Positions 31,243 through 37,840 of a DNA stretch of 39,044 bases are shown piece after piece. Both the position numbers and the translations under genes were made by a program. This DNA is from Lachnospiraceae bacterium. Lineage in GTDB: Bacteria > Bacillota > Clostridia > Lachnospirales > Lachnospiraceae. The first letter of the stretch is position 1. Each line of letters opens with the position of its first letter. Where the stretch lies: the NCBI GenBank assembly GCA_014804605.1, contig JAAUZM010000032.1, positions 45,847 through 84,890 on the forward strand. The letters are read 5' to 3'. The notes under the pieces are model-generated. The model made no database searches. It was not told the DNA's origin and saw only the letters and a program-made list of their open reading frames with translations.

Positions 31243-31376
31243 CGCAGACTCCTGCTTATATCATCCTACGTTTAGAACTACGCCATATGACTGAAGTTCA
31301 CTGTGAATAGTATATCACAATATAAGAGAAAAGCCAAAACAGAATCATGCGGCAAATCATACGATATGAATGCGTT

Positions 31377-32237
31377 TTACAGTCCTTCTTTTTTAATTCT
31401 ATACAGAATATAGAATGCAAACAAAATAGTCGGCATAAAAGGGATGATTCCTGCATATGCAGGACCGATCAATATCTTATATTGCGTTGTACTGCAGAAC
31501 AGTATGCCTGTGCTTCCCAAGCCGTTGATGGCGCTGTGGCAGATCGCTGCCGGAAGTGCGCTGTCTGTACGCAGTGTGACGTACCCTTCAATCACTCCGA
31601 TGAAAGTGCAGAAGACAATCATCATCAAAATGCCCAAATAAGGGTATCCAGGGTAATCCGTGCCGTAATTATGTCCCATGGCAATCATCGGCGCATGCCA
31701 TATTCCCCAGATTACGCCCGTAAACAGAACAGCTTTCATGGTGCCGCAGGAGTCCTTTAATCCGTATAACAGATATCCACGCCAGCCGAGCTCTTCACCA
31801 AGAGTCGGAATTACATTGATAATTGGTGAAATCGCCGTAACCACGATCAAATTGACGATCTGTGACGTGCGCATATCCGGAGCAAAATCCCACATCACGG
31901 ATGCGGTCAGGTCAAACTGTTCGCTGTAGATCAGATAATAAACCAATATACCCAGATACACTAAGATGATAAAGCTAAAATAAGCAAACAGATAATTTTT
32001 CCCATTCCCTTTGAATTTGGGTGCCAGCTTAAAATCGTGAAACCCCTGCTTCGTGAACAGTCTGGTCAGTACATTGCCGAGAACCGGCATAAACATACAC
32101 AGCATAAATATGACAAGGGACTCTATTCCCCCGTAAGCTACCCCCATAACTGGGATCAATGCAAGAAGCATCCATGTCAGGGTAAAAGTAATAACGCAAA
32201 ATAAAATCGTGCGTTTTTTCGTTATTTTATGTTCCAT
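31377..32237 (-). CDS. CPBP family intramembrane metalloprotease
   Basis: A 286-residue multi-helix protein of the Abi/CAAX-prenyl protease family. The three motifs are complete: GEELGWRGYLL (EExxxR), GVIWGIWHAP (WxxxH) and CHSAINGLG (HxxxN). Members act in bacteriocin self-immunity, prenyl-like processing or unknown roles. GGAGG at 10-base spacing precedes the start. A terminator lies between it and ybjQ, so it is probably its own unit or a read-through partner. Confidence 0.92.
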   Translation of the reverse strand: MEHKITKKRTILFCVITFTLTWMLLALIPVMGVAYGGIESLVIFMLCMFMPVLGNVLTRLFTKQGFHDFKLAPKFKGNGKNYLFAYFSFIILVYLGILVYYLIYSEQFDLTASVMWDFAPDMRTSQIVNLIVVTAISPIINVIPTLGEELGWRGYLLYGLKDSCGTMKAVLFTGVIWGIWHAPMIAMGHNYGTDYPGYPYLGILMMIVFCTFIGVIEGYVTLRTDSALPAAICHSAINGLGSTGILFCSTTQYKILIGPAYAGIIPFMPTILFAFYILYRIKKEGL

Positions 32238-32279
32238 ATCGGTTCATCCTCCGCTCAAATTAAAATTTTAAATAAATAT

Positions 32280-32315
32280 AGAGGATGCCTTGATCTTCCC
32301 CATAAGACATCCTCC
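32280..32315 (-). terminator. Terminator between ybjQ and the CPBP gene
   Basis: Minus strand AGGAGGATGTC pairs with GGCATCCTCT (plus strand arms about 32280-32289 and 32306-32315), with a 16-base loop and a T-rich tail. Two mismatches in the stem. Confidence 0.55.
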
Positions 32316-32322
32316 TTTGTTA

Positions 32323-32640
32323 TTACAGATTTTTATATTTCACAGCCGTGCCGTAAGCAATCACTTCTGCCGCTCCCTGCATAACCGAGGAAGATGCATA
32401 CCGCACATTGACAATTGCATCCGCGCCTATCGCCTGCGCTTCATCCACCATACGCTTCACGGCGATCTGTCTTGCCTGATTGAGCATTTCCGTATATTCC
32501 GTGACCTCTCCGCCGACTAATGTTTTGATTCCCGCCATAAAATCCTTGCCGAAATTTTTCGTCTGCACGATACTTCCCTTCACGATTCCTAATGTTTCTA
32601 ATTCTTTTCCTGAAATATAATCAGTATTTACGAGCAGCAT
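32323..32640 (-). CDS. YbjQ/UPF0145 family protein
   Basis: 105 residues. The typical core is present: LGIVKGSIVQTKNFGKDFMAG, MLNQARQIAVKRM, AIGADAIVNVRYASS and VIAYGTAVKY. Often annotated as a heavy-metal-binding domain, though the evidence is weak. It forms homo-oligomers in structural genomics reports as far as I recall. Start at 32640 has GAAGGAGGAG; it overlaps the end of the merR gene by 20 bases, so the two are coupled. Confidence 0.93.
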   Translation of the reverse strand: MLLVNTDYISGKELETLGIVKGSIVQTKNFGKDFMAGIKTLVGGEVTEYTEMLNQARQIAVKRMVDEAQAIGADAIVNVRYASSSVMQGAAEVIAYGTAVKYKNL

Positions 32641-33262
32641 CTTCTTCTCCTCCTTCAATCTCTCTCATGCGCTGTATCAGTGCGATAATCACTGCCATAA
32701 TCACCGCTATCGGTATGAAAATAAATACACCCAGCATCCAGAGCGGAATCGGGTCTGTTATATAGCCCCATATAAAGACACAGATAAGAAACACCATAAA
32801 AATAATAAATGTTCCTGCCGCGATGATGGAGCCGAATTTTTTTTGAATAATATCATTCTTATTCACATTGGTAAATCTCGTTCCTTCCTTCTCCATTGCC
32901 ACCATCCTTTCCAAGTATTCATCAGGCATAAGAAAGGGGTATTTACAATGATCCTCCAAAAGACTATGGCAGAGCCCGGAAGTTTCCTGCAAATTAATTT
33001 TCTCCCGTTCCAAAACGATCAACTGTCGTTGCAGCGCATCCTCAAGAAGCAGTTCGCCATGCTGAATTTTACGGATCTCCTCAATCGGAAGGGAAAGTTT
33101 TCTGAGAAGTTTGATTTTCTTTAGCTCAGACACGTCTTCCTCCGTATAGTCCCGATATCCGTTTTCAACATTTCTCTTAGGATTCAGAAGTCCTTGTTGT
33201 TCATAGAAGCGGATGTTCTTCTTGGTAATGCCCACCTGCTGTTCAACTTCGTTGATCTTCAT
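32621..33262 (-). CDS. MerR family regulator with two C-terminal transmembrane helices
   Basis: A 213-residue protein. Residues 1-70 are a MerR DNA-binding domain: KINEVEQQVGITKKNIRFYEQQGLL, NGYRDYTEEDVSELKKIKLLRKL. A coiled-coil region follows to about residue 105 (IVLEREKINLQETSGL). The C-terminal part does not look like a metal or drug pocket: after an amphipathic stretch, two membrane helices (about 146-168 and 174-198, GTFIIFMVFLICVFIWGYI and FIFIPIAVIMAVIIALI) occur. It is likely a membrane-tethered regulator. Its own promoter with a dyad in a 19-bp spacer lies directly upstream. ybjQ is the only clear partner. Confidence 0.92.
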   Translation of the reverse strand: MKINEVEQQVGITKKNIRFYEQQGLLNPKRNVENGYRDYTEEDVSELKKIKLLRKLSLPIEEIRKIQHGELLLEDALQRQLIVLEREKINLQETSGLCHSLLEDHCKYPFLMPDEYLERMVAMEKEGTRFTNVNKNDIIQKKFGSIIAAGTFIIFMVFLICVFIWGYITDPIPLWMLGVFIFIPIAVIMAVIIALIQRMREIEGGEEDAARKY

Positions 33263-33298
33263 GGTATGATTTCCTTTCTTACCCGTCCTGTTGCAATC

Positions 33299-33329
33299 AG
33301 AATAAGGCTTCCACAAGGTGGAAGGTCAA
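33299..33329 (-). promoter_or_regulatory. MerR-type promoter with dyad in a 19-bp spacer
   Basis: Minus strand TTGACC (33324-33329), 19-base spacer, TATTCT (33299-33304). The spacer contains the perfect inverted repeat CTTCCAC-CTT-GTGGAAG (33308-33324). A long spacer with a central dyad is the hallmark of MerR-activated promoters; the sequence recalls CueR-type promoters. It starts the merR-ybjQ unit about 30 bases before the ATG. Confidence 0.9.
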
Positions 33330-33357
33330 GAGTTTTTTGCAATTTTATCAATAATAT

Positions 33358-33401
33358 TATAGGGAACTTTTGCAAATATATTTTGCAAAAAATTCCCTAT
33401 A
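33358..33401. repeat. Long stem-loop between traX and merR
   Basis: TATAGGGAA (33358-33366) pairs with TTCCCTATA (33393-33401), and TTTTGCAAA (33368-33376) pairs with TTTGCAAAA (33382-33390), with a small internal bulge. No clear T-run in either direction. Could end the traX unit. Confidence 0.6.
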
Positions 33402-33465
33402 TTAAACGACCAAATTATTGCACTTTGACTGATCCTATAAAAAGCCCGAAACTTTGACACATTAT

Positions 33466-34230
33466 CTAAAAGTTTGCTGTTCCGGTTGAATATCCGACAC
33501 CCCATAATATAATGCGTATCACACCGCATATGAGCAAATGGAGCGGATAATACGCATAAAATAATTTGCCCATTCCCTTGAAAGTACCGCGTTCCCCATT
33601 ATAGAGTCGTAAAAGCGGAATCGTAAGGCAGGTTCCCAACTGGATGAGTGCGTATATTTTATCGATAAACAGGAAATATACAATTGCATACATGACTACA
33701 CAAGCCATCATATGCGTCATCTGTTTCTGAAAATTTCCTCTGTTCATGCCGATCGATAAAATTGCCATGGTAGCGATACAACTCCAGTCAGAAGGAAAAG
33801 TAATGAGACAGATGATGATAGCCGCCACGCTTTTCTGCCACGCTTTCCACTCAGCCTTGTCAAATATGTACAGTAATACCAGTCCCCATGCTAACGACCA
33901 TACAACTCCGGTCTGATTAAATATTGTAGTCTGAAAAGGGATGAAAGGTATTCCAAAGCAGAAATTGTAAGCAAAATGGGATATCGCTGCCAATATAAAT
34001 AATCTTGTAGCATATTTCTTAATATTATGTGTGTGATAATATCCCTCGGCAATGAAAAACCACATAATAGGCGCTGTAATTCTGCCGATAATATGTAAAA
34101 AAATCACATACCACTCTATAGAGTAGCCCGGAAACAATGTCCATGTTAAGTGATCCAGCGTCATCGCCACGATCGCTATCAGTTTAAGCGTATTTGCGTT
34201 TAGTCCTTTTACTTTGTCTGTATATGGCAT
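33466..34230 (-). CDS. TraX family membrane protein
   Basis: A 254-residue protein with about seven hydrophobic segments, MTLDHLTWTLFPG, IGRITAPIMWFFIAEGYYHT and ATMAILSIGMN. TraX in the F plasmid acetylates pilin; the chromosomal Firmicutes members are of unknown function, and acyltransferase-3-like activity is only a guess. AGAGGA precedes the ATG at 34230. It lies 19 bases after the TIGR03936 gene and is likely co-transcribed. Confidence 0.9.
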   Translation of the reverse strand: MPYTDKVKGLNANTLKLIAIVAMTLDHLTWTLFPGYSIEWYVIFLHIIGRITAPIMWFFIAEGYYHTHNIKKYATRLFILAAISHFAYNFCFGIPFIPFQTTIFNQTGVVWSLAWGLVLLYIFDKAEWKAWQKSVAAIIICLITFPSDWSCIATMAILSIGMNRGNFQKQMTHMMACVVMYAIVYFLFIDKIYALIQLGTCLTIPLLRLYNGERGTFKGMGKLFYAYYPLHLLICGVIRIILWGVGYSTGTANF

Positions 34231-34249
34231 GTTCAGTCCTCTTCGTTTC

Positions 34250-34948
34250 TTACCCCACATCTGCAAGCGGGATAAATCTGTGGTCGTCTCCATCTTTCGC
34301 AGTATCAGTGTAAGTCTCCAGTCTGGTCACCTGATAAGCCGACGGGGAAATTTCTACACCCGCAAACTGACACAGTTTTTCAAATACCAACGTAGGCTTA
34401 ATGTTTCCGCTGCTGCTAGCATTGACAAGCATGTGAATCGTTCCGTTCTGCCCCGCTCCGAGTTCATAGATGCCCTGTTTTAAATCCAGCTCAACAACAC
34501 TTTTCTTCGTTTCTTTCGTGTACGGGATGGTAGCCTGTCTGCAGAAATCCCGTATTTTACCTTCCAGATCATCAATCGGAAAACTGCCCTCTTTCATCCG
34601 CAGGCTGTAAGAAGCCGCCGCGACACTGGACATGGCATTTTTCACATGCTCCGGCAATATGGTTACAGAAATCACTTCCACACCTTCCACCATGACCTGA
34701 TTCAGTGCGTTTTTCATATCCTCCGTAGAAGTCATGGAGAGCACTTCAATATCCATATATTCCCCACGGCTCTCTATTCCTACGCCCAGAGGCGCCGCAA
34801 AGGACATGATCTGGTGTGGGCTGAACCCTTCCGAGTACTTAATATCGATATCTGCACGTCTGATCGCTTTCTGGAAAAAGCGCATCATATCAAGATGTCC
34901 TATAAACTTCATTGCGCCGTATTTGGCGAATTTGATTCTGATTTTCAT
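34250..34948 (-). CDS. TIGR03936 radical-SAM-linked protein
   Basis: A 232-residue protein found fused or next to TIGR03960 radical SAM enzymes in Firmicutes. Typical sequence: IRIKFAKYGAMKFIGHLDMMRFFQKAIRRA, YSEGFSPHQIMSFAAPLGVG and a C-terminal VTRLETYT segment. Function unknown, probably RNA-related because of its link to RNase E/G and L21. Start 34948 is chosen because GGAG lies 8 bases upstream; a TTG two codons earlier is also open. It normally follows TIGR03960 directly, but here a three-gene cassette lies between them. Confidence 0.93.
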   Translation of the reverse strand: MKIRIKFAKYGAMKFIGHLDMMRFFQKAIRRADIDIKYSEGFSPHQIMSFAAPLGVGIESRGEYMDIEVLSMTSTEDMKNALNQVMVEGVEVISVTILPEHVKNAMSSVAAASYSLRMKEGSFPIDDLEGKIRDFCRQATIPYTKETKKSVVELDLKQGIYELGAGQNGTIHMLVNASSSGNIKPTLVFEKLCQFAGVEISPSAYQVTRLETYTDTAKDGDDHRFIPLADVG

Positions 34949-35034
34949 TGACAATCTCCGTTTCCATCAGAGTTCTGAACATAACCAAAGGCTTTTTCAA
35001 TATCTTAAAATACCATTAGATAAAAATACATGTT

Positions 35035-35247
35035 TTACACCAATTTTTCATATTCATCCTGCAAATCTTTTGCAAGATATGCGTCACTCATACAGTGCAT
35101 ATCTGAAACTCCGTTTTTAACAAGTTGATATAAATCAGAGTGATAGAAAAATGTAAGCGCCTCGTCAAACGATATGCCTGTTATCCCGGCAAACAAACTG
35201 ACCACGCGGGCATATTTCATTTGCAATAAAGTCGGATTCGCATTCAT
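35035..35247 (-). CDS. DUF3791-like small protein (possible antitoxin)
   Basis: A 70-residue protein. Visible features are ALTFFYHSDLYQLVKNGVSDMHCMSDAYLAKDL and an acidic C-terminus (DEYEKLV). It resembles DUF3791 from memory. Overlaps the DUF3990 gene by 4 bases (ATGA). Small size and coupling suit an antitoxin or a subunit partner, but this is inference. Confidence 0.75.
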   Translation of the reverse strand: MNANPTLLQMKYARVVSLFAGITGISFDEALTFFYHSDLYQLVKNGVSDMHCMSDAYLAKDLQDEYEKLV

Positions 35248-35717
35248 GCAGGCTCACTCCTCTCATACTTTAGATATTGGTCAATTACATCTTGTGAGCG
35301 GAATACTATCTGAAAATTAGGTTTCTCATAGCGCAGCCGCTTGATAGCTTCTGTCATGTCAATCAGGCCGTCATAAAACAGCTCAACAGTATTAAATACT
35401 TTATCATTCGCCACGCCGCCCATAACGATCTCATAATCTGTGTCGTCTTCATTGCGCCGGCATTTGAGAACAAACTCTAACCATTCTTCCGAATAACTGT
35501 CAAATCTCTTCACTTTACACTCATTTAGAGCATTCTCATCCAATGCATAAACAGAAACTACTGCTGATTCCCCTTTATCTTTAAACTTTTTACACCATTT
35601 TTGTGCCTGTTCCAAAAGCGGTGTTGTGTAAAATCCACGCCCAAAATCTACATTTGTTCTGGAATGTATGATATCCGGATTTGCGACTTCCGTATAAGAG
35701 CCATGATATAGAATCAT
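35244..35717 (-). CDS. DUF3990 protein, putative ADP-ribosyltransferase
   Basis: A 157-residue protein with the ART-like signature: LYHGS (residues 3-7), then RTNVDFGRGFYTT (20-32), and YEIVMGGVANDKVF (95-108) in place of a catalytic Glu/Asp strand. The pattern H-G-S plus G-x-G-F-Y-T-T is shared by the ADP-ribosyltransferase superfamily, including DUF3990. No signal peptide is present, so it would act in the cytoplasm. It is flanked by two DUF3791-like genes, each overlapping by 4 bases, so the three are one coupled unit. Toxin activity is inferred and not shown by the sequence. Which acidic residue would be catalytic is not clear to me. Confidence 0.8.
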   Translation of the reverse strand: MILYHGSYTEVANPDIIHSRTNVDFGRGFYTTPLLEQAQKWCKKFKDKGESAVVSVYALDENALNECKVKRFDSYSEEWLEFVLKCRRNEDDTDYEIVMGGVANDKVFNTVELFYDGLIDMTEAIKRLRYEKPNFQIVFRSQDVIDQYLKYERSEPA

Positions 35718-35947
35718 ACCGTTATTCCTCTCTTTTTCATAAGTTCCTCAATATCCTCCACGATATATTCCTTGCCCTGTGTATGCAGGATATCGTAGCA
35801 TGGCACAATATAGCTATATAGAATGTCACTTTTTATCGTCAACGCATCATAAACCTTCTCCGCCGCAACATTCAAATGAATTGCTATATTTTCCACGCAA
35901 AAAATAGCAAATTCCAGCTCTTTTTCATTTTGAATGACATCTGACAT
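35714..35947 (-). CDS. DUF3791 small protein (possible antitoxin)
   Basis: A 77-residue protein beginning MSDVIQNEKELEFAIFCVENIAIHLNV and ending ILHTQGKEYIVEDIEELMKKRGI, which is the typical C-terminal DUF3791 pattern as I remember it. It starts 18 bases after the TIGR03960 stop, with AGAGGAGAG upstream, and overlaps the DUF3990 gene by 4 bases. It is the first gene of the cassette. Confidence 0.82.
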   Translation of the reverse strand: MSDVIQNEKELEFAIFCVENIAIHLNVAAEKVYDALTIKSDILYSYIVPCYDILHTQGKEYIVEDIEELMKKRGITV

Positions 35948-35965
35948 AATAAAGGCTCTCCTCTT

Positions 35966-37840
35966 TTACTCACACACTCTCTCATAACAGATTCCGCCGC
36001 CGAAACGGTTTGCTCCGCACCCCTGACACTGCACCTTACAGTTAGGAGAAACTGTCTGGGTTTGCGCCTTCTTCCATTCACGCAGCAAAAACTCCTTCGT
36101 CACGCCGCAGTCCAGAAAATCCCATGGGAAATTCTCATCATCTGCCCGCTCCCTCGTGGTGTAAAATCCGATATCCAGACCACAGTCCTCAAAGCTTTTC
36201 ATCCATATGTCATTGTGAAAATACTCGCTCCATGAGTCAAACAGACAGCCCCTTTTATAAGCCTCCATAATCACTTGAGCAATTTTACGGTCACCTCTGG
36301 CAAAAACACCCTCCAGCACACTCACGTCCGCCTCATGCCAGTTGTACTTTATACTCTTCTGATTGAGCTGCTCCATAATCCCCCGCTTCGTCTGATAAGC
36401 CTTCTCGATAAATTCCTCCTTCGTGCACATAGGTGCCCACTGAAAGGGCGTAAAGGGCTTTGGAATGAAAAAGGACGTGCTGGTGACAATCTGCACTTTG
36501 CCGTTGATACGCTTGTCCTTCGGAACAGTATCAAAAAAAGTCGCCGCAATCTTATTGGAAAGATCGCCGATGCCCCGGATATCTTCCTCTGTCTCGGTAG
36601 GAAGCCCCAGCATGAAATAAAGTTTCACTCTGGTCCATCCGCCCTGAAAGGCAAGCGCCGCGCCTTTTAAGATCACTTCCTCCGTCAATCCCTTATTGAT
36701 TACGTCCCGCAGTCTCTGGCTGCCCGCCTCCGGCGCGAAGGTAAGGCTGCTCTTCTTGACATCCTGCACCTTGCTCATCACATCCAGAGAAAAGGCATCA
36801 ATACGCAGAGACGGCAGGGAGATATTCGTATGTCTCTGACCGCAGTCTTCAATCAGGAAATCCAAAAGATCATCCAGACGGGAATAATCGCTGGAACTTA
36901 AAGAACTTAAGGAAATCTCTTCATATCCTGTGTTTTTAAGCATTTCAACCGCGTATTCCTTAAGTTTGTCCACATTCCTCTCCCGCACGGGACGATATAA
37001 CTGACCTGCCTGACAGAACCGGCAGCCGCGGATGCAGCCCCTTTGAATCTCCAATACTACCCGGTCCTGTGTCACCTTAATAAAAGGAACTACCGGCTTT
37101 AGCGGATAATGCGTATTTGTCACATCCATCACGATCTCTTTTAAGATAGTGTCGGGAATATCATCATACAGCTTACGCCGTCCCCGTATCGTACCGTCCT
37201 CGTTATAAAGCTCCTCATAGAACTGCGGCACATATATGCCGGGAATCTTCGCTGCTCCGCGTAAGAAATCCTGCCTTGACCCGCCATGATCTCTATTTTC
37301 AATATACCAGTCAAATAATGTGCGGTACTGTGTCTCACCTTCCCCGATATAGAACAGATCAAAAAATTCTGCAATCGGCTCCGGATTATAGGTGCACGGA
37401 CCGCCGCCGATCACGATAGGCATATCCTCTCCCCGGTCTTTAGCACATAGTGGTATCTGTGCAAGATCCAGTACCTGCAAAATATTGGTATAGCACATTT
37501 CATACTGAATGGTTATCCCGAGAAAATCCATATTTTTGACCGGTTCCTGCGATTCTAAGCCAAAAAGCGGAATATTCTTATCCCGCATAATCTTATCCAG
37601 ATCAACCCACGGAGAATAGACGCGCTCACACCACACGTCCTCCCACTCGTTCAGCATACTATAAATAATCTGGATGCCAAGATGAGACATGCCGATCTCA
37701 TATACATCCGGAAAACACATTGCGAAACGAATCGCCACCTGCGATTTATCCTTTACGACAGAGTTCACCTCATTGCCAATATAACGTGCAGGCTTCTCCA
37801 CCTGCATTAAAATGTCGTCGCTTAATGCCAGTTTTCTCAT
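35966..37840 (-). CDS. TIGR03960 B12-binding radical SAM protein
   Basis: A 624-residue protein. An N-terminal B12-binding-like domain (IGMSHLGIQIIYSMLN, FLGITIQYEMCYTNIL, GGGPCTYNPEPIAEFFD) is followed by the radical SAM cluster motif RGCIRGCRFCQAG (CxxxCxxC) around residue 270 and SLPSLRIDAFS. A C-terminal cysteine-rich segment (CKVQCQGCGANRFGGGICYE) may bind another cluster. Function is unknown, possibly modification of an RNA or protein. The partner TIGR03936 and the RNase E/G gene lie downstream on the same strand, but are separated by accessory genes. Confidence 0.95.
   Translation of the reverse strand: MRKLALSDDILMQVEKPARYIGNEVNSVVKDKSQVAIRFAMCFPDVYEIGMSHLGIQIIYSMLNEWEDVWCERVYSPWVDLDKIMRDKNIPLFGLESQEPVKNMDFLGITIQYEMCYTNILQVLDLAQIPLCAKDRGEDMPIVIGGGPCTYNPEPIAEFFDLFYIGEGETQYRTLFDWYIENRDHGGSRQDFLRGAAKIPGIYVPQFYEELYNEDGTIRGRRKLYDDIPDTILKEIVMDVTNTHYPLKPVVPFIKVTQDRVVLEIQRGCIRGCRFCQAGQLYRPVRERNVDKLKEYAVEMLKNTGYEEISLSSLSSSDYSRLDDLLDFLIEDCGQRHTNISLPSLRIDAFSLDVMSKVQDVKKSSLTFAPEAGSQRLRDVINKGLTEEVILKGAALAFQGGWTRVKLYFMLGLPTETEEDIRGIGDLSNKIAATFFDTVPKDKRINGKVQIVTSTSFFIPKPFTPFQWAPMCTKEEFIEKAYQTKRGIMEQLNQKSIKYNWHEADVSVLEGVFARGDRKIAQVIMEAYKRGCLFDSWSEYFHNDIWMKSFEDCGLDIGFYTTRERADDENFPWDFLDCGVTKEFLLREWKKAQTQTVSPNCKVQCQGCGANRFGGGICYERVCE

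What the first reader, a model, noticed from the sequence alone, without database searches (positions are those of the whole stretch)
35035..35947. ADP-ribosyltransferase-like cassette (DUF3791-DUF3990-DUF3791) inside a conserved RNA-metabolism operon
Three small genes overlap by 4 bases each and lie between the TIGR03960 radical SAM gene and its partner TIGR03936, which are normally adjacent. The middle gene has the H-G-S and GxGFYTT signature of ADP-ribosyltransferases. The flanking small proteins are candidates for antitoxins or chaperones, and having two of them is unusual. The arrangement is compatible with a toxin-antitoxin system or a phage-defence module co-expressed with the host operon, so its level would follow ribosome and RNA turnover. 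Toxin activity is inference.
Basis: partly seen in the sequence, partly recalled or inferred. Interest (0 to 1): 0.75.

Follow-up and report, generated by a model that had tools for sequence, protein, structure and literature searches.

The report
Three-gene ADP-ribosyltransferase toxin-antitoxin-like defence cassette
A gut bacterium carries a small, widely shared three-gene cassette, probably a poison-like enzyme held in check by two similar helper proteins, slipped between two housekeeping genes at a spot where its relatives carry other genes, some defence-like, or nothing.

Summary
Three overlapping minus-strand genes lie at the stated coordinates between TIGR03960 and TIGR03936. The middle protein is DUF3990, with a conserved H-Y-Q motif as in ADP-ribosyltransferases; the outer two are DUF3791 relatives. 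PADLOC-DB already lists this combination as phage-defence candidate PDC-M13, so it is a new member of a known, untested kind. Two DUF3791 genes are the rule: 78 of 80 related loci, from several phyla, have A-B-C in this order. The site is variable: in the genus 16 of 68 measurable TIGR03960/TIGR03936 junctions hold over 500 nt of extra DNA, against 2 of 85 elsewhere in the family. Three of the 68 hold this cassette; others hold Fic, TIR-LRR, nucleotidyltransferase or unassigned genes. A sister genome inside the carrier clade has the empty site. Elsewhere at least 3 of 80 copies sit in BREX operons; one splits pglX, with A fused to one half and C to the other. B is broken or deleted with A and C kept more often than the reverse (9 v 1, a small hand-picked count). 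Best reading: an ART toxin restrained by a two-part antitoxin, acting in phage defence. Toxicity, fold, target and trigger are untested.

The parts
35714..35947 (-). gene A: DUF3791 protein, 77 aa, first of the triad; starts 18 nt after the TIGR03960 stop
   Evidence: PF12668 5.8e-21; PADLOC PDC-M13A 2.6e-35
35244..35717 (-). gene B: DUF3990 protein, 157 aa, ADP-ribosyltransferase-like, putative toxin/effector; H5, Y30, Q136
   Evidence: PF13151 4.7e-52; PDC-M13B 9.5e-69, also PDC-M13A 5.3e-45 and PDC-M10A 4.6e-38; H5, Y30, Q136 in 15 of 15 of A2 and 89, 88, 89 of 89 of A4
35035..35247 (-). gene C: second, divergent DUF3791-like protein, 70 aa
   Evidence: PDC-M13C 1.2e-34; PF12668 21.1 bits, below the cut-off
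34949..35965 (-). approximate extent of the insertion between the two core genes (about 1 kb), compared with the empty site of G018
   Evidence: alignment A1, junction read-out
35966..37840 (-). upstream core gene, TIGR03960 B12-binding radical SAM protein
   Evidence: 1021 bits
34250..34954 (-). downstream core gene, TIGR03936 radical SAM-associated protein (likely start ATG at 34948)
   Evidence: 218 bits; start by comparison with relatives

Best explanation
The triad is a member of PADLOC's phage-defence candidate PDC-M13. B is an H-Y-Q-type ADP-ribosyltransferase that harms its own cell when free; A and C bind it and keep it inactive as a two-part antitoxin, made together with it by translational coupling. 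Infection, or loss of the element that carries it, upsets A or C and frees B, which ADP-ribosylates an unknown target and stops growth. At this locus it is cargo at an exchange site between two core genes and probably uses the host operon's transcript. Shown: gene order, conservation, motif, site variability, copies inside BREX operons, loss pattern (small sample). Inferred: enzyme activity, toxicity, A/C binding, trigger, target, use of the host transcript.
For: All three proteins match PDC-M13 models. A and C flank B, each over at least 80% of the profile, in 78 of 80 loci; exact 4-nt overlaps A/B in 61 and B/C in 56 of the 79 with a B ORF. H5, Y30, Q136 in 15 of 15 HMM-found relatives and in 89, 88, 89 of 89. 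Of these 89, 13 match ART-PolyVal and 4 PARP at E up to 0.01, best 3.8e-5; Pfam's ART clan includes DUF3990 (PMC7955679, passages). DUF3990 is the C-terminal domain of some T6SS Rhs proteins (PMC4524185, PMC10763514, passages). B broken or deleted with A and C present at 9 loci, against 1 with B intact and A not found (p=0.018). At least 3 of 80 loci lie in BREX operons, one inside pglX. DUF3791-DUF3990 genes on a conjugative Bacteroides plasmid; 11 of 22 B ORFs in the IMG/VR loci have A and C. dN/dS of A, B, C 0.13, 0.21, 0.18 (G000 v G014) and 0.34, 0.08, 0.09 (G000 v G012).
Against: No structure or assay. The window B alone matches ART-PolyVal only at E 0.022; the PARP and ART-PolyVal matches inspected in relatives lie under Pfam's cut-offs; B's profile finds no solved structure and gives no hhalign signal to KptA. 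The 9:1 count is small, hand-picked and from loci found through B; many DUF3990 genes of other subfamilies stand without A (17 of 36 genus B ORFs with neither partner), so a DUF3791 pair is not needed for every DUF3990. PDCs are mostly unvalidated (PMC12988326, passages).
Confidence: 0.65

Rival explanations
1. A plain addiction/stabilisation module: the same ART toxin and DUF3791 antitoxins, but selected for keeping plasmids, prophages or islands in place, with no phage-sensing role.
For: 70 of 72,556 plasmid records match B by tblastn, 28 of these conjugative; in pBF9343 a zeta-toxin gene follows; 21 IMG/VR loci.
Against: Chromosomal at this site under purifying selection, with no mobile-element gene recognised among the neighbouring ORFs looked at; copies inside BREX operons.
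Confidence: 0.2
2. B is not a toxin but a regulatory ADP-ribosyltransferase that modifies its neighbours (here TIGR03960/TIGR03936), with A and C as targeting subunits.
For: Co-directional and tightly spaced with the host operon; natural A-B fusion in L027.
Against: Neighbours differ from locus to locus and 65 of 68 measured junctions of this operon in the genus lack the triad.
Confidence: 0.07
3. A decaying cassette with no present function.
For: The sister genome G018 lacks it, so it is dispensable; B is broken in several relatives.
Against: All three ORFs are open in G000, G012 (some masked bases) and G014; dN/dS is below 1; H5, Y30 and Q136 are kept.
Confidence: 0.06

Closest known systems
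PDC-M13 (PADLOC-DB 2.0.0 phage-defence candidate)
   Same: All three proteins match its models at 2.6e-35, 9.5e-69 and 1.2e-34
   Different: No evident difference in the proteins; what is added here is the site, its turnover and the pglX-splitting copy. The primary description of PDC-M13 was not available to read, so these may be known to its authors.
CmdTAC (anti-phage toxin-antitoxin-chaperone system)
   Same: Three genes with an ART toxin bearing an HY-[E,D,Q] triad (PMC11618068, passages)
   Different: CmdC is SecB-like and CmdA has a long unstructured tail (same passages); here both partners are short DUF3791 relatives with no SecB-like hit
DUF3990 C-terminal domains of T6SS Rhs proteins
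   Same: Same Pfam domain in a toxin position (PMC4524185 and PMC10763514, passages); its function there is called unknown
   Different: Part of a secreted effector with a separate immunity gene; here a stand-alone small protein
DarTG
   Same: ART toxin-antitoxin system used against phage (PMC9967889 and PMC11481870, search listings only)
   Different: DarG is a macrodomain de-ADP-ribosylase (recalled); no macrodomain hit here

Membership tests
PDC-M13 | DUF3990 protein matching PDC-M13 models | tested here: met
   9.5e-69 to PDC-M13B; PDC-M10A second group at 4.6e-38
PDC-M13 | two flanking small proteins matching PDC-M13 models | tested here: met
   2.6e-35 and 1.2e-34
PDC-M13 | phage defence activity | not testable with these tools
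   PDCs are described as mostly unvalidated (PMC12988326, passages)
ADP-ribosyltransferase, H-Y-[EDQ] clade | conserved H, Y and E/D/Q | tested here: met
   H5, Y30, Q136 15/15 in HMM-found relatives and 89, 88, 89 of 89 in A4; Y30 in A4 is partly imposed by the search pattern; that these are the catalytic positions is inferred
ADP-ribosyltransferase, H-Y-[EDQ] clade | sequence similarity to established ART families | tested here: inconclusive
   ART-PolyVal 13/89 and PARP 4/89 relatives, those inspected under Pfam's cut-offs; window B itself only 0.022; no KptA signal (7 of 8 loci used, one row, L214, probably a wrong ORF)
ADP-ribosyltransferase, H-Y-[EDQ] clade | ART fold | not testable with these tools
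   structure prediction switched off; no solved relative by sequence
toxin-antitoxin system | small, co-directional, overlapping genes kept together | tested here: met
   78/80 loci; A/B and B/C both overlap by exactly 4 nt in 47 of 79
toxin-antitoxin system | toxin gene lost more readily than antitoxin genes | tested here: inconclusive
   9 v 1 loci, p=0.018; 4 v 0 within the 80, p=0.08; small, hand-picked
toxin-antitoxin system | toxicity of B alone, rescue by A and/or C | not testable with these tools
   needs expression tests
CmdTAC / TAC | SecB-like chaperone gene | tested here: not met
   A and C give no SecB-like hit in Pfam or PADLOC

The most novel reading that the evidence does not exclude
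The triad is a portable tripwire: A and C clamp B in an A-B-C complex and can be wired into a host protein. In L173 pglX is split, its two halves are fused to A and C, and B sits between them, so the complex would hold PglX together and release the ART when PglX is attacked or displaced by a phage inhibitor. Tucking the triad into operons such as TIGR03960-TIGR03936 would be a looser form of the same guard logic, with B set free when the host transcript or protein is lost.
Probability: 0.14. Interest if true: 0.85.

Novelty: new member of a known kind. Interest (0 to 1): 0.47.

Why it matters
PDC-M13 is reported 3,324 times in a survey of 6,530 rumen microbial genomes and MAGs (PMC13356809, start of abstract and passages). 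In the held open-licence papers, DUF3990 occurs in 4, DUF3791 in 1 and PDC-M13 in 1; the passages I saw of these six report no functional test. The loci here give testable anatomy: an H-Y-Q triad, a fixed A-B-C order, a copy in which B is deleted, three divergent triads in one genome, and a natural pglX split that predicts an A-B-C complex. The TIGR03960/TIGR03936 junction is also a handy place to look for further defence-like cargo in this Lachnospiraceae genus.

Tried and rejected
Solved-structure search with B and with its profile: only chance hits. hhalign of B's profile with KptA (7 of 8 loci, one row probably a wrong ORF) and with two unrelated controls: no signal in any. Bacterial PARP and ART-PolyVal relatives as references: 2 of 299 genomes with weak hits and 0 of 249, not used. 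Enrichment of defence genes around triads: a tally of 145 neighbours was made, with no control set, so no enrichment is claimed. Mirror-tree correlations of 73 triads (r 0.79, 0.79, 0.72) have no background control and prove little. That A fits the A model and C the C model better in 73 of 73 is partly circular, since the models were built from these loci. Promoter and terminator scans around the triad gave nothing decisive. Rejected: 'two DUF3791 genes are unusual' and 'fixed feature of the operon'.

Full report
What is there. On the minus strand, A (35714-35947), B (35244-35717) and C (35035-35247) overlap by 4 bases each and lie between TIGR03960 and TIGR03936. B is DUF3990 (4.7e-52), A is DUF3791 (5.8e-21), and C is a divergent DUF3791 relative (21.1 bits, under Pfam's cut-off of 25). 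All three match PADLOC models named PDC-M13; B matches PDC-M13B best (9.5e-69), then PDC-M13A (5.3e-45) and PDC-M10A (4.6e-38). The combination is thus already on record as a phage-defence candidate. PDCs in PADLOC-DB 2.0.0 come from 'guilt-by-embedding' and are mostly untested (PMC10855318 and PMC12988326, passages).

B as an ADP-ribosyltransferase. H5, Y30 and Q136 are invariant in 15 DUF3990 proteins, the window's and 14 found by the Pfam profile (A2). In a wider set of 89 (A4) H5 and Q136 are in 89 and Y30 in 88. That set was recruited partly through the patterns [VKL]DF[GS]xGFYxT, DFGxGFY[TAV]T and G[GK]VAND[KR]VF, so conservation of the GFY region there is partly imposed; H5 and Q136 lie outside these patterns. 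H-Y-[EDQ] is the triad of one ART clade, and Pfam's ART clan includes DUF3990 (PMC7955679, passages). Of the 89, 13 match ART-PolyVal and 4 match PARP at E up to 0.01, best 3.8e-5 for each; in the ten proteins inspected singly such matches lie in the N-terminal part and under Pfam's cut-offs. For the window's B alone the ART-PolyVal match is weak (0.022). A comparison with KptA gave nothing, no solved structure matched, and structure prediction was off. ART identity is likely but rests on motif and family, not on a fold made here.

The triad is a unit. In 78 of the 80, A and C flank B over at least 80% of the profile; the exceptions are a contig edge (L155) and a decayed locus (L175). Exact 4-nt overlaps occur A/B in 61, B/C in 56 and both in 47 of the 79 with a B ORF. 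These 80 were chosen for likeness to the window's B. Other DUF3990 subfamilies differ: of 36 B ORFs in the genus loci L001-L035, 11 have both partners and 17 neither; of 22 in the IMG/VR loci, 11 have both and 6 neither. The window's genome holds six DUF3990 matches, three of them in triads (L001, L003, L005). In L027 A and B are one protein.

Loss pattern. B is interrupted while A and C are present at L090, L113, L116, L176, L183, L188, L189 and L034 (in L034 the A-like part is fused to B), and B is cleanly missing between intact A and C in L195: 9 cases. The reverse, B intact with A not found, was seen at L031: 1 case. With B making up 150 of 281 profile positions this gives p=0.018; within the 80 genome loci alone it is 4 v 0, p=0.08. 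Left out of this count: L155 (edge), L175 (all decayed), L190-L194 and L196-L200 (B broken or partial, but A or C not found, partial or of another subfamily), and intact DUF3990 genes of other subfamilies whose partners are absent, single or only weakly DUF3791-like (among them L002, L004, L006, L009-L013, L015-L018, L020, L021, L023-L026, L028-L030, L092-L097, L103-L106). Counting these last as 'B without A' would reverse the ratio, so the argument holds only within the A-B-C subfamily. Solo DUF3791 genes also occur (L201-L204, no B match).

The site. Distances between the TIGR03960 and TIGR03936 matches were read off and put into. In the genus 68 junctions could be measured in 67 of 77 genomes; of the other ten, eight gave no TIGR03936 match and G009 and G046 have the two genes on different contigs. 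Sixteen of 68 exceed 500 nt, against 2 of 85 measurable junctions in 98 family genomes outside the genus (Fisher p 5.9e-5; median 64 v 4 nt). Junctions are not independent, because sisters share cargo. Cargo seen: the triad (G000, G012, G014); DUF4143/PDC-S01 plus Fic/PDC-S04 (G057); a metallophosphoesterase-domain protein, a nucleotidyltransferase and an unassigned partner (G027); SPFH plus TIR-LRR (tested in G003; G002, G004 and G007 by eye); a metallo-beta-lactamase-like and/or YqeY-like gene (G013, G016, G017, G040, by eye); a 222-aa protein alone or with a 541-aa one (G059, G060), unassigned; G038 unassigned. Not all of this is defence-like. In G054 a gap of 294 nt reads by eye like the tail of a Fic gene. 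Outside the genus G376 carries a 768-aa ORF and G426 no clear gene. In a TIGR03960 tree of 20 genomes the empty G018 is the sister of G000 (support 1.0) inside the clade of triad carriers (1.0), so the triad was most simply gained before that clade and lost in G018. Between G000 and G014 dS of A, B and C (0.16-0.26) is near that of the flanks (0.27-0.28) and dN/dS is 0.13, 0.21 and 0.18 (flanks 0.05-0.08), which fits vertical descent under purifying selection. Against G012, which has masked bases, dN/dS is 0.34, 0.08 and 0.09, and dS is uneven (0.06, 0.09, 0.42; flanks 0.20-0.26), so some recombination is possible.

Embedding. Of 97 related triads (a few near-duplicates included), 27 have a same-strand upstream gene within 60 nt, 27 a downstream one, 9 both. 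Five such neighbourhoods hold, among others, GH32, NUDIX, aldo-keto reductase, UvrB and sulfatase genes; a tally of 145 neighbours is. At least three of the 80 loci lie in BREX operons, found with PADLOC and with the PglX and PglZ of L173 as queries: L139 right after pglX and before pglZ; L135 after the end of pglX (cut by the contig) and before an AlbA_2 gene and pglZ; L173 inside pglX. In L173 the upstream ORF matches PglX 1-884 of 1174 and then PDC-M13A, the downstream ORF matches PDC-M13C and then PglX 875-1168, with B between them and pglZ next. L163 lies 5 nt before a type I restriction gene. B. fragilis pBF9343 carries DUF3791 and DUF3990 genes followed by a hypothetical and a zeta-toxin gene.

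Mechanism. Most likely B is a growth-stopping ART kept inactive by A and C. DUF3990 in the toxin position of T6SS Rhs proteins supports toxicity by kinship, though its function there is also unknown (PMC4524185, PMC10763514 and PMC12165300, passages). CmdTAC shows that an HY-[EDQ] ART with two helper proteins can sense phage and block translation (PMC11618068, passages); the parallel is functional, not familial, since neither A nor C looks like SecB. The pglX split suggests A and C meet in one complex. Target, trigger and the roles of A versus C are unknown.

Organism. Two genus loci are identical to named records, Lachnospiraceae bacterium UBA7202 and an uncultured Lachnospiraceae MAG, so the window is from a Lachnospiraceae genus.

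Noticed in passing
L173:2032-9262: PDC-M13 triad splits the BREX gene pglX, with A fused to the N half and C to the C half, pglZ following.
   Followed up: partly
L073:2171-5889 (G003); L074, L075, L076 alike by eye: SPFH protein plus an 890-aa TIR-LRR protein at the same TIGR03960/TIGR03936 junction, an immune-receptor-like architecture.
   Followed up: partly
L151:2634-3536: A 300-aa protein with a partial DUF3990 domain (1-118) followed by a Fic domain, with an A gene upstream.
   Followed up: no
L144:3727-5004: Gene A is in frame with the end of an ORF that looks by eye like a serine recombinase.
   Followed up: no
L195 (G045:C1:110000-112200): A and C intact with B missing, leaving a short spacer.
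   Followed up: partly
window 31243-34249: The TIGR03936/RNase junction is also variable: of 30 genus loci, MerR-like matches in 17, the RNase gene without MerR in 11, TraX-like only in L048, L053, L054 and L061.
   Followed up: partly
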